Shown here: one piece after another, positions 47,147 through 64,000 of the stretch
Position numbering within the stretch: position 1 is the first letter of the stretch
Layout of the letters: every line of letters starts with the position of its first letter
DNA from: a virus
Strand: one strand, 5' to 3'
Length of the DNA: 64,000 nucleotides
IMG/VR virus record: IMGVR_UViG_3300008116_000054
Span: 1-64,000 of that record
Notes under the pieces: model-generated
Told to the model about the DNA's origin: nothing
Seen by the model: the letters and a program-made list of their open reading frames with translations, nothing else
Databases searched by the model: none
Program-made: the position numbers and the translations under genes

Positions 47147-47730
47147 CACTGTGCCTCTGCTTGCTGGGTTGTTGCCTTAGGTGCCGACCTGACACCGATA
47201 AGCTCTACGATGTGGCGTGATCCGTTGATGCTCGTCTCGACCGTGTGGCCGACGGACTTGCCCAGGAAACCGTCCACGATGTCCTTGTTAGAGATCTCGC
47301 TCAGCGCGGTCTTTGACCTGAAGATGCCTCTGTCTTCGGGCTCGTCGGGCGTCGTCGACGTGATGATGACGATGTCCTCAGGAGAGGACACGACCGTGGC
47401 GGCTTCCAGTCCGCGAGCGGTGTCGTCTCGGTCCGACGCCGACTGCCAGTCCTCGAGCTTGAACCTGTCTGCCTCTTTTGCTAGTAGGGTCTTGTCTACG
47501 TTCAGCGTAGAGACGATCGCGTTTAGCTTGTACTGGGTGTCGTTCAGCGCCCCGTAGAAGCGGGTAAGATCGTCCTGCATCGGGCGGAGCTGCTCCATCA
47601 GCTGCTTCATCAGCGCCTGATTTACTCTGATGGCCAAGGAAAGGTTCGTGGCCTCTTTCTCGAGGGCTTCGAGTCTCTCCGAGGTGCTCACTACTCGTTT
47701 CTTGTTCTTGTGGTCCATAATTCTCATCAT
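47146..47730 (-). CDS. Coiled-coil protein with GreA-C-like end, 194 aa
   Basis: Residues of about 18-95 form a long coiled coil. The end DIVDGFLGKSVGHTVETSINGSRHIVELIGV resembles the C-terminal (FKBP-like) domain of GreA/GreB (LLGK.VGD.V...G....EI..I). The coiled-coil-plus-FKBP-like order is that of Gre factors, which enter the RNA polymerase secondary channel. The match is weak and a structural role is equally possible. Confidence 0.45.
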   Translation of the reverse strand: MMRIMDHKNKKRVVSTSERLEALEKEATNLSLAIRVNQALMKQLMEQLRPMQDDLTRFYGALNDTQYKLNAIVSTLNVDKTLLAKEADRFKLEDWQSASDRDDTARGLEAATVVSSPEDIVIITSTTPDEPEDRGIFRSKTALSEISNKDIVDGFLGKSVGHTVETSINGSRHIVELIGVRSAPKATTQQAEAQ

Positions 47731-47749
47731 GCCTCCCGGTTTATGTTGA

Positions 47750-48568
47750 TCAAGCTCGCTTCTCGCGGACTCGGTCTGCTAGTGCCTTAAGTATGGCGAT
47801 GTCTTCTGTAGACAGCTGAGGAACGGATCTGCCGGTACCCAGCAGCTGGGCCAGCTCTACGTTCAAGAACTCTCTGATCTTGTTCTCGATGATCTCGTAC
47901 TCGTTGCCCTTGCGCTTGATGATCCTTGACGACAGGATATCGTTGATCGCGTTGGCTTGCTGCAGCTTGAGCTGCTCTGGCGTTAGCTTGGATGTAGTGT
48001 CTATCTTCACGACGTTTGACTCTGGAAGTTTTTCCTGTGCCTGTGCCATATCTTCTACCTTCTCGGGTGTTGACGTCTTGGCTTCATTGAGTATCGGGGC
48101 GATGTCTTGCTTAGTCAGTTTTACGAAACCGTACTTATAGGCAAGCGCATCGTAGAGCTGAATGGCAGAATCAAAGTCTGTTCGCGTCAGGGGCTCGTTG
48201 TTGTCGACGCACCTTTTCCAGTGCGCCTCGATGTTGTCATCGTACATCAGGATGCGGGTGACGTCGTTCTGCTGCTCGATCTCGCGAAGGATCTCTAGAT
48301 CGTCGTCTGAGAGTAGCGGATTTCGCCGGTATACGTAAGGCCACACGCACTCACCGTAGTGCGATCTGTCTAGTACGACATCTTGCCCAGACAATGACAC
48401 TAGGGTATCGATCATATCGTCAAGATATGATGGCCCAGTGTAGCCTGGCTGGTAGTATTTTTTATCAGGAGCGGAGAAATGAATGTAGCGGTAGCCTTGG
48501 GCCTCATATGCTTTCGCAAGCGTACTCTTGCCCGAACGATCGATGCCTTCGATTATGATCAGAGCCAT
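47750..48568 (-). CDS. Deoxynucleoside/nucleotide monophosphate kinase-like protein
   Basis: 272 residues from ATG 48568 (GGAGG five bases upstream; ATG 48580 is an alternative). Walker A GIDRSGKST at 8-16, then a DVVLDRSHYGECVW substrate/Asp-Arg region near 63-76, as in thymidylate-kinase-fold enzymes. The first 160 residues are the kinase; the rest is a helical extension with no recognised domain. Likely supplies dNDPs or dTDP during replication. Confidence 0.75.
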   Translation of the reverse strand: MALIIIEGIDRSGKSTLAKAYEAQGYRYIHFSAPDKKYYQPGYTGPSYLDDMIDTLVSLSGQDVVLDRSHYGECVWPYVYRRNPLLSDDDLEILREIEQQNDVTRILMYDDNIEAHWKRCVDNNEPLTRTDFDSAIQLYDALAYKYGFVKLTKQDIAPILNEAKTSTPEKVEDMAQAQEKLPESNVVKIDTTSKLTPEQLKLQQANAINDILSSRIIKRKGNEYEIIENKIREFLNVELAQLLGTGRSVPQLSTEDIAILKALADRVREKRA

Positions 48569-48585
48569 ATAGACCTCCATGCATC

Positions 48586-48593
48586 ATATTATA
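48586..48593 (-). promoter_or_regulatory. Late-type promoter box TATAATAT
   Basis: GTATAATATGATGC on the minus strand, about 18 bases before ATG 48568; the leader keeps GGAGG. Confidence 0.5.
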
Positions 48594-48619
48594 CACATGG
48601 GATCTATATGTTTGAGATG

Positions 48620-50539
48620 TCACTCTTTTTCGGCTTCTGCGGCGGCGTTTATCGGGTTGCGCATGACCTGGCCTTCTACGCTTCCAGCTCGAGTTGCGCC
48701 GTACTGCTTAGCGGATTCCTGAAGCTGCTGTACAGGAGACTCTTGCTTGCTGTGCCGAACCGCTGCCTGAGCATCTGCTTGTTTTTGTTTTTCCGCTTGG
48801 CCGTCAGCTGCCTGTTGTTGGGATTCTAACTGTTGCTGCTGCATTTCCATCTGTTGCTGCTGTTGATCTTTTGCTTCTTTATGGGCCTGCTTTGTCATAA
48901 GCAGATTTTGAAATTGAAGGAACATAGGATCGCCTGGTAGATATTTTAATTCATTTCTATTTGTTGCTCCAGTATCACCCAGAAAGAACTCACGTTGCTC
49001 TCCCTTGGTCATCATCTTGTCTACAAGAGTCCAGAACGACTGATTAAGAGGAAGATCTGCAATTGGATGACTAAGGGGTTTTTTGTCTTCATTTTTCAGA
49101 AGATCGTTCATAGAAGCAAAAACTGTCTGCTGCGCTTGTCTGAGCGATATATCTGTCTGAGGTGTATCGTCCGTGTAGCCTACGAACTTGAACTTATAGC
49201 GCTCTGCCAGCGTTTTGTCCAGCGCAGGAACGACATCTTGGTTTATCAGGTCCTCGATGAAGAACAGTATCGGCAGCAGACCACGCTCGCGAGAGTACGT
49301 GATCTTGAACTGGCCTGACTCTTTGGCCTGAGAGGCCGCGCGACCGTTCGCCGTGGTAAGGTAGTCGAGGCCGACCTCGATGGGGTCGATCTGGAACTGC
49401 GCGCATATGCTTCGCATGATGTGGGAGTTGAAGTTGATGTACTCCATCTCCTTGGCCGAACCAGACATCGGTATCCACTGCACGTCGTCTAGGCCGGCGA
49501 CTATAGGCGTCCGCCAAGCATTGTTGGATCCTGATATAGTGTTGTAGAACTGACGACGGAAAGATGCAAGAGTGTTCTGAGTAACCGTGCCCTTAAGGTG
49601 TAGTATTCCTCGTGCAGCGTAGCCATGGGTGAAGTAGTTCGCATTGTATGATTCCACGTTAAGGTGGTTCGTGATCATTATCACCGACTGCTCGACCATG
49701 GATATGGCGTAACCGTTCGAGTCTGCAAAGTTCTTGGGATTGAACAGCTTGAAGATCATGTCCTCGTCGCCGAAGACGTTGAGGACTCGGTTGTCGACCG
49801 ACTGCTGGACGTACTTGAAGTACTCGATCTCGGGCGTGTTTACGTGGCCGCGGTTAGACGAGTCGTTGTCGGATCTTTTCTTGTGATACAGGTCTACGGC
49901 GACCTTGGCCTGGCCCTCTACCGTGGCTCGGTTGATGTTGGGGTTTACCTTGTAGACCGTCTCCGCGGGCAGGGGACGGAACCTGTGAAGGCCGCCTTTC
50001 CTGGTCAGGACCTTCTCGCACGCGATGTGGCCGAAGCAGAGCGCGTCCCACACGATGAGCTTGACGAACTCGCCGAAGAGCATCTCCTCGCCGCGAGGCG
50101 TTCCGTCTATGCGACCGCAGTGGTAGACGAAGTCTTCCAGCATGCGGATGTTGTCGATGTCTTCCTGAGACATGGCCGAGTGGTCTGTCTTGACGAACTT
50201 GTATCCCATGTCGAAGCGCTTGTGCTGGGGGCGAGAGAACCTCAGGACCGTATCGCAGCGGATCTGAAGGATCGTGTTCACGAGCCAGTCGCGCATCGAT
50301 ATCTCGCGCAGGGTTCTGTTAGATATGCGAGAGACCCTGCTCTTTGAGAGAAAGTAGTTGTGGACCGCGTGGTCGTAGAACGGGTCGGTCAGTATGGCCT
50401 TGGCGCCTACGAGCTCGCCGGTGCCCGGCTGACTTTGGGATTTGTCTGGCGCGTCGTCTGCGTCGACTTTTGTTAAGTCCTCTATGTCCTTGCGAATCGA
50501 GTCGGTAACCGCTTTCTTGATATCTTCAATCCAAGACAT
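48620..50539 (-). CDS. Portal protein
   Basis: 639 residues, phage portal family by size, context and content: LREISMRDWLVNTILQIRCD near the start, a central FADSNGYAISMVEQSV and FHSHIMRSICAQF-type helix, PIEVGLDY, and SQAKESGQFKITYSRERGLLP. A Gln-rich coiled C-terminus (about 545-600, QQQQQMEMQQQQLESQQQ) probably forms the portal crown. The dodecameric portal is the DNA entry vertex and docking site of the terminase. Own late-type promoter just upstream. Confidence 0.9.
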   Translation of the reverse strand: MSWIEDIKKAVTDSIRKDIEDLTKVDADDAPDKSQSQPGTGELVGAKAILTDPFYDHAVHNYFLSKSRVSRISNRTLREISMRDWLVNTILQIRCDTVLRFSRPQHKRFDMGYKFVKTDHSAMSQEDIDNIRMLEDFVYHCGRIDGTPRGEEMLFGEFVKLIVWDALCFGHIACEKVLTRKGGLHRFRPLPAETVYKVNPNINRATVEGQAKVAVDLYHKKRSDNDSSNRGHVNTPEIEYFKYVQQSVDNRVLNVFGDEDMIFKLFNPKNFADSNGYAISMVEQSVIMITNHLNVESYNANYFTHGYAARGILHLKGTVTQNTLASFRRQFYNTISGSNNAWRTPIVAGLDDVQWIPMSGSAKEMEYINFNSHIMRSICAQFQIDPIEVGLDYLTTANGRAASQAKESGQFKITYSRERGLLPILFFIEDLINQDVVPALDKTLAERYKFKFVGYTDDTPQTDISLRQAQQTVFASMNDLLKNEDKKPLSHPIADLPLNQSFWTLVDKMMTKGEQREFFLGDTGATNRNELKYLPGDPMFLQFQNLLMTKQAHKEAKDQQQQQMEMQQQQLESQQQAADGQAEKQKQADAQAAVRHSKQESPVQQLQESAKQYGATRAGSVEGQVMRNPINAAAEAEKE

Positions 50540-50566
50540 AAAGTCTCCAATAATATGCGCTTTTAT

Positions 50567-50574
50567 TTATTATA
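50567..50574 (-). promoter_or_regulatory. Late-type promoter box TATAATAA
   Basis: GTATAATAAATAAAAG on the minus strand in the 39-base gap between terminase and portal genes; leader of about 21 bases with GGAG. Confidence 0.55.
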
Positions 50575-50578
50575 CTTA

Positions 50579-53242
50579 TCAAAACGTCCAAAGAAATCCA
50601 CCGTCTACAGACTTATCGTCTTCCTCGTCATCGATCTCAGACAGCCTTCCTATTTTACCAAGCTTATCGGCATTAACCTCTGGATTAAACGGCAGGTTGT
50701 TGAGTTTCGCGTACTCTTCTGGAGTGGGCGCCTTGAAGAAATTTCCATTGTTATCAACCAGTTTTGCCATATCGACGTCCAAACCGGCAGATGAAAGCAC
50801 GATCTGGTTCTTGCCGAAAAGGTTCGTCAGCGGGTATCGTAAAGCATCCAGCCAGTGATCGTGCTCGCTGTCTGGAGTGTCTGATATCTGGCCAGCGGCA
50901 TCGGTTTTGTAGTGGTAGAGCTGGAACTCCCTTATCAGAGCCTGACATGTCTCCTGAGCAATGAAAAGCTTAGACTCGGCAGTGCCTGGAATCTTGAGCC
51001 ACTTCTTTATGATCTGTATGCCGGTGTTGATGTTTCCCTTGTCTGTGTTTGTCGAAGTCGGAAGGCCAAGCTTCCTCATCTCTACTGCGTCACCAGGATC
51101 CGCTTGGTCAGGAAAGTAGAGTTGGATACGGTATGGCTGATGCCACTTGTTCTTGATGTGGTGCATCCACGTGGGCCTTGATATATACGTCATGCCGTCG
51201 CATCTTACGACGTATATGTTCTCTTTTGCGTCCACGAAAAATACCACGAGCGTGTGCGGGTTTGACCATCCCCAGTCGATGCCGGCGTACGCTGGAAGAC
51301 CCATGTTGTGACAGTTGCCGCTCAGCGATATTACTCCGTTGCGGCGAACAAATAACCTAGACGAGGGCATCGTTACACAATAGACCATTCCATCGTAGTC
51401 TACTTCACCTATGTTTCCTTGTGTTTTATTAGAATATTCGCTCTTGTTGGTTCCGTTGTTGATGTAGTACGAACGATCTGCTGGCTTGTTGTTTGTCTTA
51501 AAGTGAAAATTAACTCTAAAACGTCTTAGGTACTCAGTCCCTGTGTTCTTGTGCGTTTTGCCTTGATTACCCTGCATTGAAAGAGAACTCTTATATCCCA
51601 ATCTAAAGCATAGCTCTTGAACATCGTTGGCAAGCTGCTCAGAGCCTGTTGAATAATAAGGCTGTTGCCTTGATCCGTCGAACATGTACGAGCCGTCCCC
51701 GAAGCATAGCCACTCCAAAAGGATCGATAGCTGCCTGCGGGAAGCTTGTTCAAGTATGTTCCTAGATATCAACTTGTTGACGGCAAACTTTAAAGGCTTT
51801 AAGTAATTATATAGTTCTTTGTTGTATACGGACCAGTTTGTCGTATAGTCAACCTGATCCCGAGCATCAGACTCTCTGTGAAGCTTGTTGGGCCAAGCTA
51901 TCGATGCCATAAGCCGCTCAACCTTGTCAGAGGCGTCTCTGCTCTTAGACTGAGAAACCTCTACCTTGTTGTGCCCCCACTCGTCGTTTGCTCTTGTCGA
52001 ACTCATAGAGCCTTCGCTCAGCCAAAGCCCCATGAAGGCCATAAACTGATCGCCGGTCATGAAGCTTATAGGAGATTTTATGTCCATGTTGTTTGCTGTA
52101 GAGCCGGAAAGCCAGGTAGCCGGTATGTAAAAATCGTTCAGCTCGTCAAGAGAGTCTGCTCGCTGCTTCAAAAGCTTTATCTCTTGCTTCTTTCTGAAGT
52201 TTCTACCGTGAAGGTACTCGACATCGTGGTTGGGAGTAACCAGAAGGTCGAGATGGTGCTTGCCTCCGCCTATCTCATTGTAAAGGTTTACCATCTTTCC
52301 CTTATAGTGATACGAGATGTGCTCTATCGGTTTCTGGTAGTTTAACACACCACCGTTGTCTAGGGTGGCTAGAGTGTCATACTCAGTAAGATCTTTAAAA
52401 AGCTTAAAGCCGTTGTTCGTCAAAACCTCAGTGTCGTCACTGAAGCATTTCTTGACGAATATATCGTGGTTGCACTCGCCAGGAAACTCTTTTCCGGTCA
52501 GCGACAACCACATCTGGTTCCAGGTCTTGACGTGCATGCGCTCGTCGAACTCTTTGTAGATGATCCCCTCGACCGACGGCTTTAGATTCATCAGCTGGGA
52601 CATCGCCCAGTCAGGACCCTCTGACAAGACCTTCTGCGCGAGCTCGTCTATAGACTTGAGCATCGGCGATTCTGAGACTTGATTCTTGGCGTCGCCGAGG
52701 CATATAGGAGCGAGTGGGCATTTCCCGCAGCCTATGTACATCTCGTATCTCTCGTACTCTTTCTTCCTCTGCTCGCCGAGCTTCTCGAACTCTGACGGAG
52801 ATCTCACGTCGAACGACTGCTGATCGATGTAGTATTCTTGGCGCTGCGTTCCAGATCGTGAGTCTGGGCATCGCTCGGTGAACTCAAATGCGGTCCAGCG
52901 ACGAACATGTCTGCCCTGCTTCTCGGCGTTCTCGATGGCTTGGTTCATGAGACCGTATCGCGACTTTCTGGTCGATATGCCCACGCGCAGCGGCTTACGG
53001 CCGCGCTTGGAGTCGAGCATACCGGAGATTTCTTTGTAGGCGCGTAGGCCCTCACCGGAGACTGTATCAATCTCGTCCACCACGACCAGCGGCACGTGTG
53101 GTCCATTGCAGTTGTGGTTGATGGTGCCGTCAGCTGTAACAAACGAATTTGACATCGGATTGGTCGGATCGTCGCTTGAACGAACCTCCAATTTCGCTAT
53201 TTGCTTTATGCCCGTGCGCTCGATTTTCGTTACCTTAGCCAT
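50579..53242 (-). CDS. Terminase large subunit, C-terminal gene, with split-intein C-half and a full intein
   Basis: 887 residues from ATG 53242 (AGAGG upstream; a TTG at 53257 is less likely). Order: residues 1-44 IntC of a split intein ending NHN; C45 begins the extein with LVVVDEID (Walker B, 52-59) and the ATPase end; C266-N643 a LAGLIDADG-type intein; C644 onward the RNase H-fold nuclease (YAGIDWGWSN, PDSEHDHWLDALRYPL). Without splicing neither ATPase nor nuclease is intact, so production of working terminase depends on trans-splicing with the 55755-58010 product. The terminase packages DNA through the portal. Extein length from this gene: about 465 residues. Confidence 0.93.
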   Translation of the reverse strand: MAKVTKIERTGIKQIAKLEVRSSDDPTNPMSNSFVTADGTINHNCNGPHVPLVVVDEIDTVSGEGLRAYKEISGMLDSKRGRKPLRVGISTRKSRYGLMNQAIENAEKQGRHVRRWTAFEFTERCPDSRSGTQRQEYYIDQQSFDVRSPSEFEKLGEQRKKEYERYEMYIGCGKCPLAPICLGDAKNQVSESPMLKSIDELAQKVLSEGPDWAMSQLMNLKPSVEGIIYKEFDERMHVKTWNQMWLSLTGKEFPGECNHDIFVKKCFSDDTEVLTNNGFKLFKDLTEYDTLATLDNGGVLNYQKPIEHISYHYKGKMVNLYNEIGGGKHHLDLLVTPNHDVEYLHGRNFRKKQEIKLLKQRADSLDELNDFYIPATWLSGSTANNMDIKSPISFMTGDQFMAFMGLWLSEGSMSSTRANDEWGHNKVEVSQSKSRDASDKVERLMASIAWPNKLHRESDARDQVDYTTNWSVYNKELYNYLKPLKFAVNKLISRNILEQASRRQLSILLEWLCFGDGSYMFDGSRQQPYYSTGSEQLANDVQELCFRLGYKSSLSMQGNQGKTHKNTGTEYLRRFRVNFHFKTNNKPADRSYYINNGTNKSEYSNKTQGNIGEVDYDGMVYCVTMPSSRLFVRRNGVISLSGNCHNMGLPAYAGIDWGWSNPHTLVVFFVDAKENIYVVRCDGMTYISRPTWMHHIKNKWHQPYRIQLYFPDQADPGDAVEMRKLGLPTSTNTDKGNINTGIQIIKKWLKIPGTAESKLFIAQETCQALIREFQLYHYKTDAAGQISDTPDSEHDHWLDALRYPLTNLFGKNQIVLSSAGLDVDMAKLVDNNGNFFKAPTPEEYAKLNNLPFNPEVNADKLGKIGRLSEIDDEEDDKSVDGGFLWTF
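51314..52447 (-). mobile_element. Intein 3 (LAGLIDADG-type) in the terminase, before the nuclease domain
   Basis: 378 residues, C266 to N643 of the C-terminal terminase protein. Block A CFSDDTEVLT, block B VTPNHDVEY (T-x-N-H), endonuclease motifs FMGLWLSEGS and LEWLCFGDGS, block F MVYCVTMPSSRLFVRRNG, and the end ISLSGN followed by C. The penultimate residue is Gly rather than the usual His. The extein junctions are KK/C and C at the +1 position. Confidence 0.9.
53111..53242 (-). mobile_element. Split intein 2, C-terminal half (IntC)
   Basis: 44 residues starting at its own ATG: MAKVTKIERTGIKQIAKLEV, then SNSFVTADGTINHN followed by C45. This is the block F and G region of an intein (..D.EV...F...G.I.HN/C). 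Length is close to known natural split-intein C-halves. Partner is 55755-56054. Confidence 0.93.
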
Positions 53243-54893
53243 CTGAACCTCTGTCAACGCTTAAGACCATCTTCGCCTGACCCGCGTCGTAGATCTTGAC
53301 CAAGCCAAGCTCTTTGGCGTACTCTTTCTGTGTCAATTTTCTCTCGTCCATGTTAGCCTTGCAGAACAGACGATTGTAGGTCTTGTCGTAGTCGGTCCAC
53401 TTCCATCCCAGCGTGGTGCCGACGTGCACGAAGCCCATGTCCTTGAGCGAGGCGACGTCGCCGTACCGCAGGTCGACGAACGTGTAGATCTTATCTATAT
53501 CGAACGTCTTTATAGCATACTTGAGCAGCTTGGAGTAACCGCCAACGACCACGGTGCTCAGCGCAGAAGCGAACCTTACTATTTTTACTTGACTGCCCTC
53601 GAACCTTAAGGAGAGCAGGACTTTTATCTGATCTACGTCCTTGAGGGCCAGATACACGGAAGCGGACGCGAACCCCATGAGATGGTTGGCCTTGAGGAAG
53701 GTCTTCGCCTCCGGTGCGGTCACTTGTCTTATATCAAGCTTCCTGGCATGGAGTTTATCTTTCACCGCGCCAGCCTTTACCGCTATCATAGAGTCGACGA
53801 TCGACCGCTTGTAGATCACCTCGTCTGCCCTGAACTGCAGGAGCCTTAAGTTAAACTCTTCTGCTTTTAGCCTTGCCTTCAGGTGGTATTTCTTGTGTAA
53901 TGTTTTGTCCGAGTGCCAGTATAGACCGTCGACGTTGACGTAGACGCGATCGGAGACCTTGAAGTCAGGTCTTATGTTGCATCCTTTTGCCGGGAACTTA
54001 TCGAACCTTGATAACATAGGATTTGAGCTCATTAGCGTTTCTATGTCGCTCATGGTAAAGTGCTCTTCGACTAGGCTGATAAAATCGCTCTCCGTAGCTG
54101 GTAGGTGCTTGGCATAGATCTTGCACACGAACGAGTAGCTTATCTTGTCTGCGAAGTTGAGCTTCCATATATCTTTGATGGATCTTCCGTCTAAGCTCTT
54201 AGCTACGCCGATCTCTTGAAGTTTTCGTAGCCTATCCGCTGGATCCGCCTTTGTCCTTTTAGATCTCTTTCTCTCGTTTAGTCTTAATCTTCTTTCGGCT
54301 CTGGTCTCTTCTTTCTTCTTCAAGGCCTCAGGGCTAAGGAAGCGGGACCTGTTCTTGTCTATCGTCTCTGGCAGGAGCAGCGGAGTGGACACGCCGTACC
54401 GCTGGAGGTTCGTGCTCGCTATGTCGTGGTATTTTTCCTTTATCCTCTGACTCATCTTTGCCCTGAAGTCGTCTGTGGTGTGGGTCGACGCACGGCTGTC
54501 CGACAGCTTCTTAGACTTTCTTCCAGGATGAGACTGACCGTAGAAAGCAACCTTGTACACCGGAGCCCACCACTCTCCGTGGTCTACGTCGATGAACTTG
54601 GCTTTCTTGTTGGAGGAAGAGTACGAGCTTGGGTCTATAAAAACTAGACCTTGATGGTTTGTATCGAGTGCGGCGATTATGTCCGCAAGCGATATCTTTC
54701 TTCTATTGGGGTGCTTTTGGCCGCATGTGACCACCTTCGTAGGCGTCGCCCACCACTCTCCGTGGTCTACGTCGATGAACTTGGCTTTCTTGTTCATGCC
54801 GCAGAAGGTTGAGACGTCTATAGACACTAGGCCGCCGTGCTTCTCCAGCAGAAGCTGCCGTATCTTGTCTGGTGATGTCCTGACGTTAGACAA
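53235..54893 (-). CDS. Vsr-like homing endonuclease in the fractured terminase gene
   Basis: About 552 residues from TTG 54893, chosen because AAGGGG is six bases upstream and a TATAATCC box lies at 54923-54916; an in-frame TTG at 54938 would lie upstream of that box. Two copies of a KKAKFIDVDHGEWWA module near the N-terminus, then a basic linker and the Vsr-like nuclease (IRPDFKVSD, VNVDGLYWHS, LLQFRADEV) and the same C-terminal domain as the 38849 gene (HARKLDI, F...NHLMGFA, VDLRYGDVASLKDMGF). Its stop lies 8 bases inside the IntC gene. The natural target is probably the uninterrupted terminase gene. Confidence 0.88.
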   Translation of the reverse strand: MSNVRTSPDKIRQLLLEKHGGLVSIDVSTFCGMNKKAKFIDVDHGEWWATPTKVVTCGQKHPNRRKISLADIIAALDTNHQGLVFIDPSSYSSSNKKAKFIDVDHGEWWAPVYKVAFYGQSHPGRKSKKLSDSRASTHTTDDFRAKMSQRIKEKYHDIASTNLQRYGVSTPLLLPETIDKNRSRFLSPEALKKKEETRAERRLRLNERKRSKRTKADPADRLRKLQEIGVAKSLDGRSIKDIWKLNFADKISYSFVCKIYAKHLPATESDFISLVEEHFTMSDIETLMSSNPMLSRFDKFPAKGCNIRPDFKVSDRVYVNVDGLYWHSDKTLHKKYHLKARLKAEEFNLRLLQFRADEVIYKRSIVDSMIAVKAGAVKDKLHARKLDIRQVTAPEAKTFLKANHLMGFASASVYLALKDVDQIKVLLSLRFEGSQVKIVRFASALSTVVVGGYSKLLKYAIKTFDIDKIYTFVDLRYGDVASLKDMGFVHVGTTLGWKWTDYDKTYNRLFCKANMDERKLTQKEYAKELGLVKIYDAGQAKMVLSVDRGSDG

Positions 54894-54915
54894 TATAATC
54901 CCCTTAGTGCCATAG

Positions 54916-54923
54916 GGATTATA
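54916..54923 (-). promoter_or_regulatory. Late-type promoter box TATAATCC
   Basis: GTATAATCCC on the minus strand; a start about 6 bases on gives a short leader with AAGGGG before TTG 54893. Would transcribe the endonuclease and the downstream IntC-terminase gene. Confidence 0.5.
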
Positions 54924-54976
54924 CCCGATATTTATCAATTAGCCTTGATTACGGTGCATTTTTTTTACAAAGCAGC

Positions 54977-55774
54977 TCATGGACCAATCCACCCCCTTCC
55001 CAGAAGCCTACTGCACGATGCTATTGCTTGCTCCGTAGCAGTGTCACGCTTTGCGAAGTTCTCGTCTTTCCACATCGGGCTAAGGTTGGTGTAGTGCTGC
55101 AGCTTTATGAGCTCTTCTTCGTTCTGAGCCTGAGAACAAGGACATATGTGGTCGATGTGCCAGCTACCAAAGTTGTCCCACGACATCCCCGGCTGGAACA
55201 AGGACTCCAGGTGTCTTCTAACTCCCTCTATGTTGAGCCCCAACAGCTTCTCGGCCTTGTCGTTCTTCTTGTAGCGCCTGTTGATCGAGTTGGTTATCCT
55301 CACCCTTATGCCGCGCACGAAAGCCGTTTCTGGATCGAATATCTTCCAGTGTGAAAAACAAAGTTTATGCTTGAAGGCATTGTTGTCGCATGAAGCATGG
55401 GAGCATTTCTTTTTAGGTTGCCTAATTCGCCACGCTTGATAATGCGTGCCACATAAGCCTTTTTTCTCAACCTTCTTTGTGCACCCAGAAATTGAGCACT
55501 CTGGGGCCTGTTTTAGTTTGTTGGCGTTGTAGTGCACAGAACAAAGCCCGTTGTGCTTTGCATTTTCTTTGCAGTCATATTCGGAGCATCTAGGTCGAGT
55601 TGCAAATCTATCTTTATCGTAATGGGACCTACACATGCCCCTGCGAAAGATAGAGGAACCACACTTGGTGCAGCCTTTATCTAGGCGGCATTCCTTGCAC
55701 GTCGTGTAGACATTCTTGTAGAGAGGCTTCTGGCAGGATTCACAGTAGTCGGCTTTACGCTTTAACTTCTGCAT
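54977..55774 (-). CDS. HNH homing endonuclease with four GxCxxHY zinc modules, in the fractured terminase gene
   Basis: 265 residues from ATG 55774, overlapping the IntN stop by 20 bases; a longer frame from 55897 lies over the IntN sequence. N-terminal CESCQK...CKECR, then four modules of the form C....C....(9-10)GxCxxHY/W (CTKCGSSIFRRGMCRSHY and so on). The HNH block is PGMSWDNFG, WHIDHICPCSQAQNEEEL and HYTNLSPMW, and the end is nearly that of the 44801 gene. Composition is less AT-rich than some other HNH genes here. Confidence 0.88.
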   Translation of the reverse strand: MQKLKRKADYCESCQKPLYKNVYTTCKECRLDKGCTKCGSSIFRRGMCRSHYDKDRFATRPRCSEYDCKENAKHNGLCSVHYNANKLKQAPECSISGCTKKVEKKGLCGTHYQAWRIRQPKKKCSHASCDNNAFKHKLCFSHWKIFDPETAFVRGIRVRITNSINRRYKKNDKAEKLLGLNIEGVRRHLESLFQPGMSWDNFGSWHIDHICPCSQAQNEEELIKLQHYTNLSPMWKDENFAKRDTATEQAIASCSRLLGRGWIGP

Positions 55775-56054
55775 GCGCTCGCGTTGAGGTGCTTTCCAAG
55801 GATGAGATCTCGTCGGCGTCGGTGAGGTGCTGAAGCTCGATCCATCCGCGCTGGGTCCAGACTTTGTGGTCGAGGGTTCCTTCGATGACTCTTCCATCTT
55901 CTAGCTCTATCCTTATGCACTCGGCGTCTTCTAGCTCGTTGCCGAGGACCTCGACGAAGCCGGTGGTGTCTTTGATAAAATCGCCTGGCTTGAAATCTGC
56001 CAATGATCTTATTGTACCATGCACATCGGTTGACGTAGCGGAGGAAACCAGGCA
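55755..56054 (-). mobile_element. Split intein 2, N-terminal half (IntN)
   Basis: 99 residues, C653 to the stop. Block A CLVSSATSTDVHGTIRSLAD, FKPGDFI, and block B EGTLDHKVWTQRGWIEL (T-x-x-H). The last dozen residues (SSLESTSTRAHAEVKA) are likely a disordered end. The preceding extein residue is A652. Fits the length of natural IntN parts. Confidence 0.93.
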
Positions 56055-58010
56055 CGCTCGCAGCGTGCACGGGAGCACTTCAAGTGTGACTTTCTCACTC
56101 TTGATGTTGAACACTGACTTCTCCATCGTCATCTTCTCTAGGATCTTGTTCTCTTCGCTGACCTTCGGTGGGTTCACTATCGGCTTTATTCGGTCTGAAA
56201 GAAGGAATTTCTGCTGATACTCGTAGCATCGTTTTGCCTGAGAAAGGATCGCGCCCACGTGCACCACATCGCGCTGATCGTGCATCAGCACTAGAAGCTC
56301 AGCTATGGCCATGCCGAGGGTGTTGTGGCTGATGAAGCCGTTCGACCAGTACGCGTGATCGACGTCTACTTCAAGATCGTAGAAGTAATGTTTGCCAAAG
56401 GCAACTGAATCTACGGTCTCGTAACACCCCCTCCTGACGAAGGAAAGGTAGTCGGCCCAATCATATTCCTCTAGGCGTTTCGCTAGATCTATGAAATAAT
56501 CGATCTTGTAACCGTAGACATAAAGCTCCTTAGCCTTCTCGCCAGATCCCCAAAGATCTTTAGAATACTTTATATCGGAGTGGGTCTTTTTTCCCGCCTC
56601 GAGACGCCAGTATCCATTCGCGATCTCATACTTGTCTTTTATAAAAGATGCAAAGGGTTTCAACAATTTAGACGGATAGCGAAACTGCTCGTTCATCTTA
56701 GCGCTGTAGATCTTGAAGGCCTCGCGCTTAGAGAACAATGGCATCAAATATTCTGGTAGAGCGGTTTTATAATCGACGCAGTGATACTCCACTACGTGGT
56801 CTTTAACAAACTTAGTTGTAGAAGGCTTGCGTCGTTTTTTGTTGATGACGGCATGAACACCGAATAAATTCAAAATCTGAGCTATTTGTTTTATGAGCTC
56901 TGGATTGGCTAACGTTATCGAGTCTTTGGAGCCATCGGTCTCCATCATTCCAGATATAAAACCAGCCAGAAAACTTGGACTATGGTTCAATGTCTTCAGC
57001 TTTTTGAAATAGCAGAGTTCGCCCTCGATAATGGAGTCGCAGTATTCTCTTAAAGCCTTGCTACAGATACCAGCTATACTGAGATTTGGCGATCTTTTGT
57101 CATATTTCACTTTTGGTTCTACGCCAAAATGTTTGACTATAGTATCTATATATATTGCTAATTGATCTTTATCTTTTGCGGCAAAAGATATGGCATTATC
57201 AAAGCGACTAACAGAACCATCTCCGGTTATGCAGCCAACAAGCCATCCTAGTTCGTAATCGTTAGAAGACGTGTCTACTAAGGCACCTAGTGACTCTAAG
57301 GACCTATAGATCAACTGGCCCGGAATAAGATTTTTCATGTAGACCCAGTCGATCTTGCCGGTCTCGGGGTCAAGGGCTTGAACACGATGCTTTAAGGAAC
57401 CAGTCAAAGACCATGCGCCATCTTTGGTAAGATGTTTGGTAGTAATGGTTACGCCATCTTTAATGCCTTCGTCAAAAGTTTCGACCACGGGTTTCCAGGA
57501 CCAGCCGGTCCAAACTAAATCGCCAACCTTAACGTTTTGTACATATTTGGTACCACTATTGGTAATGATTACAGTATCTTGCGAAACGCACTTACCGCTG
57601 CCCCTTCCTGCAACATACAGTAATTCTTGGATATTTTGCGGATTGTTGTTGTTCGTGCATATGTCGTACACGTCCCAAACTGCATGAAAAGGAGTGGTGT
57701 CTGCATACCTGGAGACCTTGCAGTCTGGCAGGTGTAGGTTGAAGAAGTACCGGATAAAGTTCTTGAGGTCTTTCTCCGTGCGGCACGGCGTTAGCAGTAT
57801 ACGCTCCAGCTGCTCTGGCGTAAACTTGGACGCGTTCTCTGAGATCTTGCGGTTTATCACCTCCTGGCGCGCAGCCTTGGTCTCCTCGATCTTCTTCTGC
57901 TTGATCTTTGGTCGGTCGATTATAGACTTATAGTGCCCGGTGCAGTAGCCTCTGGACTTCAACGGTTTGCTGCAGCCTTCTACGGTGCATGTCCTGTTCT
58001 TACTGTCCAT
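55755..58010 (-). CDS. Terminase large subunit, N-terminal gene, with Walker A intein and split-intein N-half
   Basis: 751 residues. Order: 1-30 a small zinc module (CTVEGC...GYCTGHY); helical region; Walker A LLYVAGRGSGK ending at K140; C141-N563 a LAGLIDADG intein; T564 resumes the extein (TLGMAIAELLVL); then ATPase residues to A652; C653-A751 the N-half of a split intein. The Walker A threonine of GK(T) is therefore only joined to the lysine after splicing. Start ATG at 58010, overlapping the small subunit-like gene by 11 bases. Extein from this gene: about 229 residues; total with the partner about 694. Confidence 0.93.
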   Translation of the reverse strand: MDSKNRTCTVEGCSKPLKSRGYCTGHYKSIIDRPKIKQKKIEETKAARQEVINRKISENASKFTPEQLERILLTPCRTEKDLKNFIRYFFNLHLPDCKVSRYADTTPFHAVWDVYDICTNNNNPQNIQELLYVAGRGSGKCVSQDTVIITNSGTKYVQNVKVGDLVWTGWSWKPVVETFDEGIKDGVTITTKHLTKDGAWSLTGSLKHRVQALDPETGKIDWVYMKNLIPGQLIYRSLESLGALVDTSSNDYELGWLVGCITGDGSVSRFDNAISFAAKDKDQLAIYIDTIVKHFGVEPKVKYDKRSPNLSIAGICSKALREYCDSIIEGELCYFKKLKTLNHSPSFLAGFISGMMETDGSKDSITLANPELIKQIAQILNLFGVHAVINKKRRKPSTTKFVKDHVVEYHCVDYKTALPEYLMPLFSKREAFKIYSAKMNEQFRYPSKLLKPFASFIKDKYEIANGYWRLEAGKKTHSDIKYSKDLWGSGEKAKELYVYGYKIDYFIDLAKRLEEYDWADYLSFVRRGCYETVDSVAFGKHYFYDLEVDVDHAYWSNGFISHNTLGMAIAELLVLMHDQRDVVHVGAILSQAKRCYEYQQKFLLSDRIKPIVNPPKVSEENKILEKMTMEKSVFNIKSEKVTLEVLPCTLRACLVSSATSTDVHGTIRSLADFKPGDFIKDTTGFVEVLGNELEDAECIRIELEDGRVIEGTLDHKVWTQRGWIELQHLTDADEISSLESTSTRAHAEVKA
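56322..57590 (-). mobile_element. Intein 1 (LAGLIDADG) at the terminase Walker A lysine
   Basis: 423 residues, C141 to N563. Block A CVSQDTVIITNSGT, block B SLKHRVQALD (the conserved His), LAGLIDADG motifs LGWLVGCITGDGS and LAGFISGMMETDGS, block F YFYDLEVDVDHAYWSNG and end FISHN followed by T. A complete splicing and homing intein. The site, between K and T of GxxxxGK(T), is a common intein position because the nucleotide-binding loop is highly conserved. Confidence 0.95.
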
Positions 58011-58611
58011 CGTCGTCTACCTGCACGAGCTGCTCAAGGAGCATGGCCTCTTCTGACTTTGGCAGAAGCTTCTTCGTCGACTTAGTCTTTACCACCCTCG
58101 CCTCCTGCTGCGCGTTCGGGTTGGTGAGCGAGCGGACCGAGTCGGTGACCTTGGCCAAGGTGTCGATGACCTGCTGGTACTCTTTGAAGTTCTTTATGCG
58201 CATGTTCGGCAGCGGGTTGTTCTTGGGATCGTCAAGGAACTTCCTTATCTCGTCCGCGTTCTCGACCGACGAAACGGTTATCATGTCGGTCAGGAACTCG
58301 ACCTGCTCTACGGTGGACCTGATTATCCTGGCCCTGATGCGGTCGTATATCGAGCTCGCCAGCCTTTCCTTGTCCTTCACCCATCCGCCGGCGGCAGCCG
58401 TGTACAGTATGCGCGACTTGGAGTACTGCGGAAATCGAGCGGCAAGTTCCTCGGTGCTGTAGCCGATCAGGAACAGCTCGTATATCGGTGATGCTTCTTG
58501 TTTGTCTATCGCGCCTGACGCAGTCGGCTGACGAAGGTAACGCTCGATCTCTGCGATCTGTTCACCGGTCAGCCCGTGCTTCTGCTCCGAGCTTAGCTTT
58601 TTCTTCGACAC
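58000..58611 (-). CDS. Putative terminase small subunit
   Basis: 203 residues, GTG 58611 with GGGAG upstream. N-terminal YELFLIGYSTEELAARFPQYSKSRILY (about 44-70) is a helix-turn-helix of the type used by small terminase subunits to bind pac/cos DNA; helical middle and an acidic C-terminus for large-subunit contact. Position directly upstream of and overlapping the large subunit gene supports this. No full-family match can be shown by eye. Confidence 0.6.
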   Translation of the reverse strand: MSKKKLSSEQKHGLTGEQIAEIERYLRQPTASGAIDKQEASPIYELFLIGYSTEELAARFPQYSKSRILYTAAAGGWVKDKERLASSIYDRIRARIIRSTVEQVEFLTDMITVSSVENADEIRKFLDDPKNNPLPNMRIKNFKEYQQVIDTLAKVTDSVRSLTNPNAQQEARVVKTKSTKKLLPKSEEAMLLEQLVQVDDDGQ

Positions 58612-58996
58612 GCAAGGTCTCCCACACTGGGTGCAAAGAGATGTTGTGCAGCGTCTGATTTAGACGCAGCAACCCTATCATCTTATACCTTGATATCTGC
58701 TCGTTGGATAGACCTAAAAGGATGAGAACTATGATTGAGCGCTCTAGGTCGGTGAAATTACTGAGTATATTCTGAACAAAGCCGACCTTAAGCGTTGAGG
58801 TGTAGAGGTTCACTATGTCGTCGGCGATCCTGTCTCTTATAGAGTTTCTGAAGCTTATGTCTTCGATATTACTGTATAAATCAGAGTCAGGGTTTTCTAG
58901 GTATCGCACCCAAAGATCCTGACGATCGTCCTCGTTGGTCGAAAGTCTATCGATCTTTTCCTTTATCATCATTATCTTTGGATCTTTGTTCCTCAT
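58562..58996 (-). CDS. Hypothetical protein with possible region-4-like helices, 144 aa
   Basis: Overlaps both neighbours by 50 bases. Helical; LSNFTDLERSIIVLILLGLS, NEQISRYKMIG and LRLNQTLHNIS have a vague sigma region 4 look, but the turn residues are not convincing. Function unknown. Confidence 0.55.
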   Translation of the reverse strand: MRNKDPKIMMIKEKIDRLSTNEDDRQDLWVRYLENPDSDLYSNIEDISFRNSIRDRIADDIVNLYTSTLKVGFVQNILSNFTDLERSIIVLILLGLSNEQISRYKMIGLLRLNQTLHNISLHPVWETLRVEEKAKLGAEARADR

Positions 58997-59372
58997 ACTC
59001 AGAACTCTTCTTTAACTCCATTGATGTGGCCCATCCCGGGCCACAATACGACCGCACAAACGTCGACAGCAACTGCTGAAACTCAAGGTTTCCGTTATTG
59101 CTAAGGATACGTCTTGTTCTCCACATAGCCCATACAGAGCCTAGACTCTTGAGCTCTTGATACTTATTATAAGCTTTGACCAAGGATGGGGCCGCATACA
59201 AGACGTAGTGTACGCGCTTATTGTCTGGATCTATCGATAGTTCCAGTGCTGTAATGTGCTTGTTGACGATGCTGCCGTACATGAAAAGCGTGTCTTTGGC
59301 GTTGTCGGTGAAGAGGCCGCTGTTCATAAGCCAGCGCTGCTGGTCTAGGTACTCGCTGGATACCGTGCTCAT
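58947..59372 (-). CDS. Hypothetical protein, 141 aa
   Basis: ATG 59372 overlaps the gp47-like gene's stop by 4 bases. Helical, with YLDQQRWLMNSGLFTDNAKD and NKYQELKSLGSVWAMWRTRR, and a charged C-terminal end. Translationally coupled to the gp47 gene; no family recognised. Confidence 0.6.
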   Translation of the reverse strand: MSTVSSEYLDQQRWLMNSGLFTDNAKDTLFMYGSIVNKHITALELSIDPDNKRVHYVLYAAPSLVKAYNKYQELKSLGSVWAMWRTRRILSNNGNLEFQQLLSTFVRSYCGPGWATSMELKKSSEYEEQRSKDNDDKGKDR

Positions 59373-60361
59373 CGATCCGTCCTCGTGTAGTGTCTCAGGG
59401 TTGACTTAAGGGTGTCCCTGTCGATTCCTCCAGCGTAGACCTTGTCTACGTACTGGTCGGTCATAGTCTCGATCGTAGGAGCCGATATAGAGACCCTGGA
59501 TGATCTTGCCGTGTCCGTGAACTCGGTCTTGAAGGTCACGTGGGCCACTTTCTTGAGTTCCTTGATCTCTTTGGACTCGAGCATGGCCTTGACCTCTGCC
59601 CTTGGCCCTATAAGTTTTACTATCCACATGTCTGTCGAGTTTATGTTCATAGCAGAATCTTTGCCGACCTCGAAGTCTAGGGTCCGCCACATAGGAAAGG
59701 GTGACTCTATGAACTCCTGGGACATATCGGATATGTCTAGTATGGTGAGTCCTTTGGTCTGTCCCGCATCGCCTGCAGATAGACACATAGGCGTACCTGG
59801 GTATAGAACTCTGCCAGATCCCATCGGTCCATACTCGAGAACCTGCTTCTTGTGAATATGCCCAGATGCGACAAGGTCGCAATCCAAGACATCAGTTGAG
59901 ATTCCGTCAGTAGCCGTCTTGAAGCCATAGTCTGCGCCTATGAATGTGTTGTGCGTTATCGCGACGCTGGTTGAGATCTTAGGCCAGTCTCTTGGGTCAT
60001 GGACGTAGGGGACATACGTTATGCCGTCTGCCACGGTGACGACGTCGGCCACTATCAGGTTTTTACTCTCGAAAGGCTCGAGCGCGTGATACTCGCTTGA
60101 GTTGGGTTTATGCATGTCGTGGTTGCCTAGGAGAAGCACGGTCGGGATCTTGAGCTCGAGGAGACGGTCGAGATGCCTAGAGACCGTACACATCACCTCT
60201 GCTCGGATAATGGCGTGGGTGTCGAACGTGTCGCCTAGGTTTACGATCAAGTCTGGCTTCTTGGTCTCGGCGATAAACTCCACCCACTCCAGTAGGGCCT
60301 TGCCCTCTGAAAGATGGGTGTGGCGGATATGTGGGTCGCCGATGAGCAGGATTCTAGTCAT
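59369..60361 (-). CDS. Recombination nuclease subunit, gp47 / SbcD / Mre11 family
   Basis: 330 residues. Metallophosphoesterase motifs in order: IGDPHIR (D8, H10), NLGDTFD, LGNHDMHKP, ITHNTF and SGHIHKK. Length and spacing match T4 gp47. It would work with a gp46/SbcC/Rad50-type ATPase to resect DNA ends for recombination and degrade host DNA. No gp46 gene is in the window. AAGGAAAG precedes ATG 60361. Confidence 0.93.
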   Translation of the reverse strand: MTRILLIGDPHIRHTHLSEGKALLEWVEFIAETKKPDLIVNLGDTFDTHAIIRAEVMCTVSRHLDRLLELKIPTVLLLGNHDMHKPNSSEYHALEPFESKNLIVADVVTVADGITYVPYVHDPRDWPKISTSVAITHNTFIGADYGFKTATDGISTDVLDCDLVASGHIHKKQVLEYGPMGSGRVLYPGTPMCLSAGDAGQTKGLTILDISDMSQEFIESPFPMWRTLDFEVGKDSAMNINSTDMWIVKLIGPRAEVKAMLESKEIKELKKVAHVTFKTEFTDTARSSRVSISAPTIETMTDQYVDKVYAGGIDRDTLKSTLRHYTRTDR

Positions 60362-60370
60362 ATCTTTCCT

Positions 60371-60508
60371 TCAGATCTTGAAGCTGAGATTTATCGAGTC
60401 GATGCTCTTGACTATCTTGAGTCGCTCTATGGCTCGTATGAAGCACACATACACCATGTATGCCTCAAACGAGTCTAGATCATAGTCGTCGTCAGGATCA
60501 CGCATCAT
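60371..60508 (-). CDS. Small acidic helical protein, 45 aa
   Basis: Read from sequence: ATG 60508 overlaps the previous TGA (ATGA), stop 60373-60371. MMRDPDDDYDLDSFEAYM start, then IRAIERLKIVKSIDSINL. Looks like a pair with the next small gene; both have an I.RL..V pattern. Lies between UvsX and gp47. Confidence 0.55.
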   Translation of the reverse strand: MMRDPDDDYDLDSFEAYMVYVCFIRAIERLKIVKSIDSINLSFKI

Positions 60509-60669
60509 AGACCGCGACTTCCTGCTATCGAAAGCAGTCGCTCTATCTCTGGATCCGATATAGCGATGCTTCTACTCATCTTGAGTCTGCAGAACGCGTA
60601 CACAACCCTGACAATCAGGAAACGGCCCTTTACTAATCGTCTTAGGTTGTGGTTCGCTAAGGTGTTCAT
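60505..60669 (-). CDS. Small basic helical protein, 54 aa
   Basis: Read from sequence: ATG 60669 overlaps the UvsX stop, TGA 60507-60505. MNTLANHNLRRLVKGRFLI, then VVYAFCRLKMSRS, then an acidic end. Tight coupling in a recombination operon suggests a recombination accessory factor, but no family is recognised. Confidence 0.55.
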   Translation of the reverse strand: MNTLANHNLRRLVKGRFLIVRVVYAFCRLKMSRSIAISDPEIERLLSIAGSRGL

Positions 60670-61754
60670 ACGTCGTCTTCCACAAACCCAGACGAGTCGA
60701 TCTCGACCTTGGCGTCCTGATGCTCGTAGCAGGCACTTAGGATACGGTTCTGGAGATCTTTGTCCCCTATCACCATGTTCTTGATGTTCTGCTCGCCGCG
60801 AACCGGTGCCTCGTTTGCGAAGCACCACATCTGCGGGTTCTCTCTGCCTGTGTCTGGGTTTGTAGGATGCTTGATGACACCCAATGCTTTAGCGAGCTCG
60901 AAGATCTCGCCTCCCGTGTCGATGACGCCTAGGTCGTAGTGGAACGTGAACTCTGCCTGGCGAGCAGGCGCGCCCATCCGGTTCTTCTTCACCTTTACGC
61001 GAACCTTGTGGCCTACTTGAGCCGCTGCGCCGGTTATGGTCTCGCCTGACTCGATCACGCCCTTCTTAGAGTCAACGCGTGTGATCTCAAGCATAAGATC
61101 TGCCGCGTGCTTGAGCGCGTGGCCTTCTGAGATGACGTACGGGTTGCGCAGTGCCTTCATCGGGTCCATTTGCGCCGTAACTTGTTGAATAAACAGGGTT
61201 AATAGTTTATGTTCTGCAACTACGGGGACCACGAGTTTCAACGCAGAGCCGAGGTACTGGGATCCACTACCACCCATAATTTGGTCAGTGGTCTGCTTGC
61301 GTACGTCCTTAGGATATCTGATCGACTTAATCGAATCGATCACAATGGCCTTGATCGGTGCGCCATCCTGAATCAGCTCAAGCATCTCACCGCCGATATA
61401 GTCGAAGATCTTAACCGGATCGTTTGATTTCCTTACGACAAGACGATCTGCGTCGCCGCCTAGTTTGATGAACATCTGTGAATTGAAGGAGTACTCGGCA
61501 TCAAACCAGATCGCTAAAGCCTCTTTATCAAGCCTCTGAAGCTCGATCAGCGCCATCATAGCGAGCATCGATTTTCCAGAGCTCTCTGGACCATATAAAA
61601 TATTCACTTTGCCTGGGATAAAGCCGCCTTGGCACGTGGCCCAATTTAAAGACGGAGACCAAGTAGGAATAGCCGAGGGTGTTTGAGATCTTAACTTAGA
61701 TACAGCAACGCCTATATCGCTTGTTAGTTTAGACATCCATTTGTTTGTCGACAT
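60666..61754 (-). CDS. uvsX: UvsX/RecA-like strand-exchange recombinase
   Basis: 362 residues. RecA fold: Walker A GPESSGKS (55-62), LQRLDKEALAIWFDAEYSF, Walker B AIVIDSIKSI (about 136-145), a GGSGSQYLGSALKL region, LFIQQVTAQMDP, then the GHALKHAADLMLEI substrate loop region and an acidic C-terminus. As in T4, UvsX would form filaments on ssDNA after SSB is displaced and drive recombination-dependent replication. Its ATG is overlapped by the HNH gene at 61729. Confidence 0.92.
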   Translation of the reverse strand: MSTNKWMSKLTSDIGVAVSKLRSQTPSAIPTWSPSLNWATCQGGFIPGKVNILYGPESSGKSMLAMMALIELQRLDKEALAIWFDAEYSFNSQMFIKLGGDADRLVVRKSNDPVKIFDYIGGEMLELIQDGAPIKAIVIDSIKSIRYPKDVRKQTTDQIMGGSGSQYLGSALKLVVPVVAEHKLLTLFIQQVTAQMDPMKALRNPYVISEGHALKHAADLMLEITRVDSKKGVIESGETITGAAAQVGHKVRVKVKKNRMGAPARQAEFTFHYDLGVIDTGGEIFELAKALGVIKHPTNPDTGRENPQMWCFANEAPVRGEQNIKNMVIGDKDLQNRILSACYEHQDAKVEIDSSGFVEDDV

Positions 61755-62412: not shown

Positions 62413-62418
62413 TACACT

Positions 62419-62892: not shown

Positions 62893-62900
62893 GGTTCACC

Positions 62901-63950: not shown

Positions 63951-63991
63951 GTTAAGCTCCTAAGTTTAGTGAATAGACACAATGTCTAATG

Positions 63992-63999: not shown

Positions 64000-64000
64000 C

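What the first reader, a model, noticed from the sequence alone, without database searches (positions are those of the whole stretch)
50579..58010. Terminase large subunit broken into two genes with three inteins, one of them split
Two minus-strand genes (55755-58010 and 50579-53242) together encode four terminase extein pieces. Two cis-splicing inteins and one split intein must act to join them: Walker A is cut by intein 1, the ATPase by the split intein, and the nuclease domain by intein 3. The motifs (block A Cys, block B His, block F, terminal HN or GN) and extein junctions are visible. Natural split inteins in a fractured phage gene are known, but a terminase needing one trans and two cis reactions is unusual.
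Basis: partly seen in the sequence, partly recalled or inferred. Interest (0 to 1): 0.95.

Follow-up and report, generated by a model that had tools for sequence, protein, structure and literature searches.

The report
Phage packaging motor gene with three inteins
In this phage the gene for the DNA-packaging motor protein is broken into two genes and interrupted by three self-splicing inserts (two ordinary, one itself split in two), and in related phages the gap in the split insert holds quite different genes, which shows how a split intein arises and spreads.

Summary
Confirmed. Genes 55755-58010 and 50579-53242 (minus strand) encode four pieces of one terminase large subunit (TerL), separated by a cis LAGLIDADG intein in the Walker A motif (K|T), a split intein (99 + 44 aa) just before Walker B, and a cis LAGLIDADG intein at the start of the nuclease domain. 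The joined exteins (694 aa) align end to end, 80% identical, with intein-free TerLs. Split TerL inteins (AceL, GOS) and a protein needing one trans and two cis reactions (Trichodesmium DnaE, from memory) have precedents, so this is a new variant, not a new kind. More interesting is the population: all three inteins come and go independently. The split intein's Cys+1 goes with it: 9/9 occupied alleles Cys, 12/12 empty alleles Leu/Val in the window's clade. The gap carries exchangeable passengers: HNH, Vsr-like nucleases in either orientation, a DNA-polymerase-beta-like gene plus an unknown gene, or a trypsin-like protease. In one lineage (L066/L069) an HNH gene sits inside the N-half, giving a candidate natural three-piece intein. 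Splicing is inferred, not shown.

The parts
57591..58010 (-). TerL extein 1 (140 aa): N-terminal C-x4-C-x9-C-x2-H zinc-finger-like motif, then ATPase N-part ending GRGSGK (Walker A, cut between K and T)
   Evidence: intein-free relatives continue K|T at this place in 49/49
56322..57590 (-). Cis intein a, 423 aa: Cys1, LAGLIDADG motifs LGWLVGCITGDGS and LAGFISGMMETDGS, ends FISHN | T+1
   Evidence: PF14528 1.4e-9 and PF14890 9.5e-6; same intein in L014, L022, L030, L032, L033, L037, L046 and, without the endonuclease, L101
56055..56321 (-). TerL extein 2 (89 aa), ends LPCTLRA
55758..56054 (-). N-half of split intein b (99 aa): Cys1, block B GTLDH
   Evidence: dN/dS 0.15-0.20 against four relatives
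54977..55897 (-). Passenger 1: HNH endonuclease with repeated C-x4-C-x9-C-x2-H fingers; likely start ATG 55774, overlapping the end of the N gene
   Evidence: phrog_5351 2.1e-7, phrog_28061 2.5e-6; orthologues in the same gap in L023, L032, L101; start codons
53235..54938 (-). Passenger 2: Vsr/Hef-like homing endonuclease (567-aa ORF, true start uncertain), nuclease motif RPDFK...NVDGLYWHS...QFRADE, C-terminal domain with GNAT-like fold; its end overlaps the start of the C gene
   Evidence: phrog_3339 1.2e-38; matches to annotated Hef-like homing endonucleases of phages; alignment A3; fold comparison, low-confidence model
53111..53242 (-). C-half of split intein b (44 aa from ATG 53242): NSFVTADGTINHN | C+1; AGAGG ribosome-binding-like sequence inside the end of passenger 2
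52448..53110 (-). TerL extein 3 (221 aa), Walker B VVVDEID 9 residues in, ends DIFVKK
51314..52447 (-). Cis intein c, 378 aa: Cys1, block B TPNH, LAGLIDADG motifs, ends SGN | C+1 (penultimate Gly instead of His)
   Evidence: PF14528 4.3e-6; same intein with the same SGN|C end in L037, L071, L076
50582..51313 (-). TerL extein 4 (244 aa): nuclease domain, AGIDWGW
   Evidence: phrog_5653 terminase large subunit 1.2e-20; PF17288 4.3e-4, below its cut-off; 80 related loci
58000..58611 (-). Upstream neighbour, probably the terminase small subunit by position (no family match)
   Evidence: counterpart ORF in the same place in L066, L085, L141
48620..50539 (-). Downstream neighbour: portal protein
   Evidence: PF04860 9e-16, phrog_12 1.5e-35

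Best explanation
This is one terminase large subunit gene that has been invaded by three mobile inteins. The inteins at sites a and c are ordinary cis-splicing class 1 inteins with LAGLIDADG homing endonucleases. The intein at site b is a naturally split class 1 intein in a 'fractured gene': the N gene ends in the 99-aa N-half, then come an HNH gene and a Vsr/Hef-like homing endonuclease gene, then the C gene starts with the 44-aa C-half. The four genes overlap or abut and are likely translated from one message. The N and C products each excise one cis intein, the split halves associate and trans-splice, and a 694-aa (79.5 kDa) TerL results. All three elements are mobile between related phages; the split intein brings its own Cys+1 and its passenger genes are exchangeable. 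Shown by sequence: anatomy, collinearity, conservation, presence/absence, coupled Cys+1, passenger exchange, recombination near the site. Inferred: splicing, order of reactions, endonuclease activity and target.
For: Collinearity with intein-free TerLs. TerL identity: phrog_5653 1.2e-20, Mx1 phage TerL 3e-50 over 81% of the query, profile match to D6E TerL 1e-7, model of the intein-free relative L024 best matches D6E TerL 3e-14 and T4 gp17 1e-10. Joined split halves: block B TLDH and terminal HN|C invariant in 11 loci; profile hits NrdJ-1 9e-6 and gp41-1 4e-5. Purifying selection on N-half (0.15-0.20) and C-half (0.04-0.29) where dS is not saturated. Cys+1 at site b occurs with the intein in the window's clade, 9/9 versus 0/12, and in independent pairs 6.3 to 0, p about 0.03. 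Cis inteins are younger than the exteins around them: window vs L022 intein a 94% aa, pS 0.52, exteins 68-88%, pS 0.78-0.87; window vs L037 intein c 91%, pS 0.71, exteins 61-85%, pS 0.86-0.97. L016 (split) and L022 (empty) are 100% identical from about 500 nt right of site b but 65% just left of it, a recombination break at the insertion.
Against: No proteomics or splicing assay. Intein c ends GN rather than HN and the split intein is distant from tested ones, so efficiency is unknown. Homing endonuclease targets are not identified. Four intein-free genes of another clade also have Cys+1 at site b (L047, L139-L141), so the coupling is clade-wide only.
Confidence: 0.88

Rival explanations
1. 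The split intein is a relic: the two TerL parts work as separate non-covalently joined subunits without trans-splicing, as in the phage Aeh1 ribonucleotide reductase 'genes in pieces'.
For: A genes-in-pieces enzyme that keeps function as two peptides after a homing endonuclease insertion is described (cited in PMC10448857). The ATPase would be cut 12 residues before Walker B.
Against: Catalytic residues of both halves are invariant across 11 divergent loci, halves are under purifying selection, and Cys+1 is kept only with the intein in this clade. A relic would decay.
Confidence: 0.06
2. A pseudogene or assembly/sequencing artefact that merely looks like a broken terminase.
For: Two genes and three inserts in one essential gene look degenerate.
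Against: Same arrangement 99.87% identical without gaps in three other contigs of other assemblies, and partly in seven more. No stop or frameshift inside any extein or intein. No second TerL in the record.
Confidence: 0.03
3. RNA splicing (a group I or II intron) rather than protein splicing joins the parts around the nuclease genes.
For: Introns with endonuclease genes do interrupt phage terminase genes (ICP1 terL, PMC10448857).
Against: No Rfam family matches in window 47,000-64,000 at E up to 1, nor in L066 apart from two chance-level hits. The flanks encode intein halves in the right frames.
Confidence: 0.02

Closest known systems
Fractured genes with split inteins (Dassa et al. 2009; examples AceL NrdHF, Pseudomonas phage MIJ3 PolB)
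   Same: Phage gene broken by a split intein at the usual position, with a free-standing homing endonuclease gene between the halves; Vsr-like nucleases are a typical passenger (Dassa from memory; AceL NrdHF with GIY-YIG; MIJ3 with HNH).
   Different: Here in TerL, two nuclease genes at once, plus two cis inteins in the same protein; in relatives non-nuclease passengers (polymerase-beta-like + unknown, trypsin-like protease).
AceL-TerL and GOS-TerL split inteins
   Same: Natural split inteins in phage terminase large subunits; Cys+1.
   Different: Those are atypically split, 25/104 and 37/115 aa; this one is split 99/44. From memory they sit in a T4-type TerL at Walker B, another site; not tested here.
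Trichodesmium erythraeum split DnaE (Liu & Yang 2003)
   Same: One protein made from two genes by one trans and two cis splicing reactions (my knowledge; title only seen).
   Different: Bacterial replicase, unrelated protein and inteins; there two cis inteins lie in the N gene, here one lies in each gene.
gp41-1 and NrdJ-1 split inteins
   Same: Closest solved relatives of the joined halves by profile, similar N/C proportions.
   Different: Weak similarity (E 9e-6 to 1e-4), other host proteins.
LAGLIDADG TerL inteins of cultured phages (Gordonia GMA6, Psychrobacillus Perkons)
   Same: Cis inteins in annotated terminases that match intein c (GMA6) and intein a (Perkons).
   Different: 23-25% identity, single intein; no three-intein TerL found in 50,697 phage records by these searches.

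Membership tests
Terminase large subunit | Walker A, Walker B ATPase followed by RNase H-like nuclease with catalytic Asp | tested here: met
   GRGSGKT, VVVDEID, AGIDWGW in the joined extein; fold matches D6E TerL and T4 gp17
Class 1 intein (a) | Cys1, block B T-x-x-H, terminal HN, +1 nucleophile | tested here: met
   Cys1, GSLKH, FISHN|T; S replaces T in block B
Class 1 intein (c) | Cys1, block B T-x-x-H, terminal HN, +1 nucleophile | tested here: inconclusive
   Cys1, TPNH and Asn|Cys met; penultimate residue is Gly, not His, conserved as GN in L037, L071, L076
Split class 1 intein (b) | Two separate genes carrying complementary intein parts with all blocks | tested here: met
Split class 1 intein (b) | Protein trans-splicing activity | not testable with these tools
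   needs expression or mass spectrometry
Fractured gene arrangement | Free-standing homing endonuclease gene between the intein halves | tested here: met
   HNH and Vsr/Hef-like genes at 54977-55897 and 53235-54938
Fractured gene arrangement | Endonuclease cleaves the intein-free allele and drives homing | not testable with these tools
   only indirect: horizontal spread and recombination near the site
AceL/GOS-TerL split intein family | Short N-fragment of 25-37 aa | tested here: not met
   N-half 99 aa, C-half 44 aa; published sizes
Natural three-piece split intein (L066/L069, relatives only) | Three polypeptides together carrying one complete set of intein blocks | tested here: inconclusive
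   Cys1 piece fused to HNH, middle ORF with blocks N2 and B, C-half with HHN|C; no intron found; one lineage, no activity data

The most novel reading that the evidence does not exclude
Once split, the site-b intein became an exchangeable cargo slot: its halves hold TerL function together while the gap is refilled with unrelated genes, including non-nuclease ones (DNA-polymerase-beta-like gene plus unknown gene in L009/L016, trypsin-like protease in L085), and in L066/L069 a second endonuclease insertion has broken the N-half again, making a natural three-piece split intein that needs three polypeptides to splice.
Probability: 0.35. Interest if true: 0.8.

Novelty: new variant of a known kind. 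Interest (0 to 1): 0.62.

Why it matters
It gives a natural series for one gene: empty site, cis intein (another intein, L079), split intein with nuclease passengers, split intein with non-nuclease passengers, a possible healed allele (L047), and a possible three-piece intein. That makes the old question of how split inteins arise, persist after losing their nuclease and are lost directly testable with near-identical alleles (for example L016 against L022). It also gives about ten new split-intein pairs and, in L066, a natural candidate for a three-piece intein, so far known to me only as engineered constructs. For phage biology it means an essential motor protein can depend on three protein-splicing events.

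Tried and rejected
Pfam terminase PF03237 in the record: no match, so TerL identity rests on PHROGs, Mx1 TerL and the fold. Vsr-like nuclease against PDB sequences: none; its model is of low confidence (pLDDT 65.6) and the fold search picked up only a C-terminal GNAT-like domain. Group I intron hypothesis: no Rfam match. My first statement that Cys+1 at site b is almost confined to occupied alleles was too strong: genome contigs added three empty alleles with Cys, and I restricted it to the window's clade. L066 first looked like a duplicated TerL fragment; the second piece is a spurious alignment over the C-half ORF. More loci of the three-piece type were sought; only L066/L084 (one contig) and L069 exist. 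Weak intein-like hits L104-L112 are other genes and were left aside.

Full report
What is there. On the minus strand, gene 55755-58010 (751 aa) and gene 50579-53242 (887 aa from ATG 53242) carry four terminase pieces and three inteins. In order: extein 1 (57591-58010), cis intein a (56322-57590, 423 aa), extein 2 (56055-56321), N-half of split intein b (55758-56054, 99 aa); then an HNH gene (ORF 54977-55897) and a Vsr/Hef-like homing endonuclease gene (ORF 53235-54938); then C-half of intein b (53111-53242, 44 aa), extein 3 (52448-53110), cis intein c (51314-52447, 378 aa), extein 4 (50582-51313). The portal gene follows.

Is it one terminase. The joined 694 residues align without a break at any junction to uninterrupted TerLs from related viral contigs: L024 554/694 identical with a single 1-residue gap near the C terminus, L038 and L041 likewise collinear. 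The family is far from cultured phages: the best match in 50,697 phage records is Myxococcus phage Mx1 TerL, 27% over 81% of the query. A structure model of the intact relative L024 (pLDDT 75.8) has D6E TerL (3e-14) and T4 gp17 (1e-10) as its best solved matches, and the alignment profile matches D6E TerL by sequence. Site a lies between K and T of Walker A, site b 12 residues before the DE of Walker B, site c 12 residues before the catalytic Asp of the nuclease domain (AGIDWGW).

Is it real and constrained. The 7,432-bp region is 99.87% identical without gaps in L007, L008 and L040, from other assemblies. No stop or frameshift interrupts any piece. For split intein b, relatives give an alignment of 11 joined halves in which block B T-L-D-H and the terminal H-N-C are invariant; the profile finds the solved split inteins NrdJ-1 (9e-6) and gp41-1 (4e-5). 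Where synonymous change is not saturated, dN/dS is 0.15-0.20 in the N-half and 0.04-0.29 in the C-half. Rfam finds no intron, and the record holds no second TerL.

Mobility. Over about 80 related loci each site is occupied or empty independently: a and c without b in L037, a and b in L030 and L032, b alone in L009, L011, L016, L023, L039, a alone in L014, L022, L033, none in L024-L028 and many others. The nearest relative by TerL C-part, L009 (93%), lacks inteins a and c and has different genes in the split-intein gap. Intein a of the window and L022 are 94% identical (pS 0.52) inside exteins of 68-88% (pS 0.78-0.87); intein c of the window and L037 91% (pS 0.71) inside exteins of 61-85% (pS 0.86-0.97). 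L016 (occupied at b) and L022 (empty at b) are 100% identical in DNA from about 500 nt right of site b, 78% next to it and about 65% just left of it: a recombination boundary at the insertion, as homing with co-conversion would leave.

The +1 residue. At sites a and c the empty alleles already have the +1 nucleophile (Thr 49/49; Cys 65/71). At site b they mostly do not: Val or Leu in 46 of 48 viral loci. In the window's clade all 9 occupied lineages have Cys and all 12 empty lineages Leu or Val; over the whole tree, independent pairs go 6.3 to 0 in favour of coupling, p about 0.03. Four empty alleles of another clade (L047, L139-L141) do have Cys, so this is a rule of the clade and not universal. 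The simplest reading is that the Cys codon arrives with the element and that splicing is under selection. Spliced TerL then differs from intein-free TerL at this residue.

Passengers. The gap between the halves holds HNH + forward Vsr-like (window), forward Vsr-like alone (L011, L030), HNH alone (L023), HNH + reversed Vsr-like (L032), reversed Vsr-like alone (L039), HNH + another nuclease (L101). Two kinds are not nucleases: in L009/L010 and L016-L021 a gene with DNA polymerase beta palm and thumb (PF14791 3.7e-12 and 1.8e-8; PF14792 7e-5 and 1.8e-5) plus an unknown gene of about 300 aa, and in L085 a trypsin-like protease (PF13365 1.7e-6). The polymerase-like pair stands in L071 in the structural operon downstream of TerL, so it seems to be an ordinary phage gene pair that has moved into the gap.

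A possible three-piece intein. In L066 (contig 3300025687_000443), with the right part seen also in L069 (3300007538_005435), the first gene ends LPCTLKA|CLTENSKVTI... and runs in frame into an HNH endonuclease; a separate ORF (L066 6533-6952) carries the rest of the N-half (KPGD, GTLDH); the C-half (LHHN|C) starts the third gene. The break lies near residue 11, like the engineered 'S1' split (PMC3620165). No intron was found. It is one lineage without activity data.

How it probably works. The overlapping genes suggest one message: ATG 55774 of the HNH gene lies inside the end of the N gene, and the C gene starts inside the end of the Vsr-like gene behind AGAGG. Each precursor removes its cis intein, the halves of b associate and ligate, and an 80-kDa TerL forms. 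The order is unknown. The nucleases probably cut empty alleles and drive spread; this is inferred from the families and the spread pattern only.

Known or new. Split inteins in TerL (AceL 25/104, GOS 37/115; PMC11766414), fractured genes with HNH or GIY-YIG between the halves (PMC6892783, PMC7891396) and a DnaE needing one trans and two cis reactions (Trichodesmium; from memory, title) are known. Dassa et al. 2009 is not held and is cited from memory. What I found no report of in the held library is the combination in TerL, non-nuclease passengers in a split-intein gap, and a natural three-piece intein; the literature search was limited to open papers.

Noticed in passing
L066 5045-8480; L069 1-2608: Candidate natural three-piece split intein: HNH gene inserted inside the N-half of intein b, so Cys1, the middle blocks and the C-half are on three polypeptides.
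   Followed up: partly
L009 6685-8113; L016 6674-8135: Split-intein gap holds a DNA-polymerase-beta-like gene (palm and thumb) and an unknown 300-aa gene instead of a nuclease; the same pair lies downstream of TerL in L071 7380-8620.
   Followed up: partly
L085 6212-6982: Trypsin-like serine protease gene with an N-terminal hydrophobic stretch between the halves of the split TerL intein.
   Followed up: partly
L101 2857-4098: Site a holds a 139-aa mini-intein of the same family without the LAGLIDADG part, an apparent endonuclease deletion.
   Followed up: no
L079 7158-8338: Site b holds a seemingly unrelated contiguous (cis) intein ending SLQ|C (terminal Gln instead of Asn).
   Followed up: no
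L052 1249-2336: Fourth TerL intein site near extein residue 367, at AACF|, in a relative that also has intein a.
   Followed up: no
window 57921-57990: TerL extein 1 begins with a zinc-finger-like motif that matches phage HNH endonuclease families (phrog_5351 2.6e-6) and resembles the fingers of the HNH passenger; present in intein-free TerLs of this clade, absent in more distant ones.
   Followed up: partly
window 53235-54938, C-terminal third: The Vsr/Hef-like nuclease seems to carry a C-terminal GNAT-acetyltransferase-like fold (best solved matches are GNATs; model of modest confidence).
   Followed up: no
window 44828-45178, 43248-43541, 46099-46362, 30907-31209, 6802-7080, 10319-10456: Several further HNH catalytic domains related to the passenger HNH (35-55% identity), so the phage carries many homing-type nucleases.
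   Followed up: no
window 61729-62412: NUMOD3-HNH endonuclease gene directly upstream of the UvsX/RecA-like gene 60666-61754.
   Followed up: no
L139, L140, L141: Closest TerLs in bacterial genome assemblies lie in Bacteroidota MAGs (Saprospiraceae, Cytophagales, Flavobacteriaceae), a hint at the hosts; L141 has intein a.
   Followed up: no
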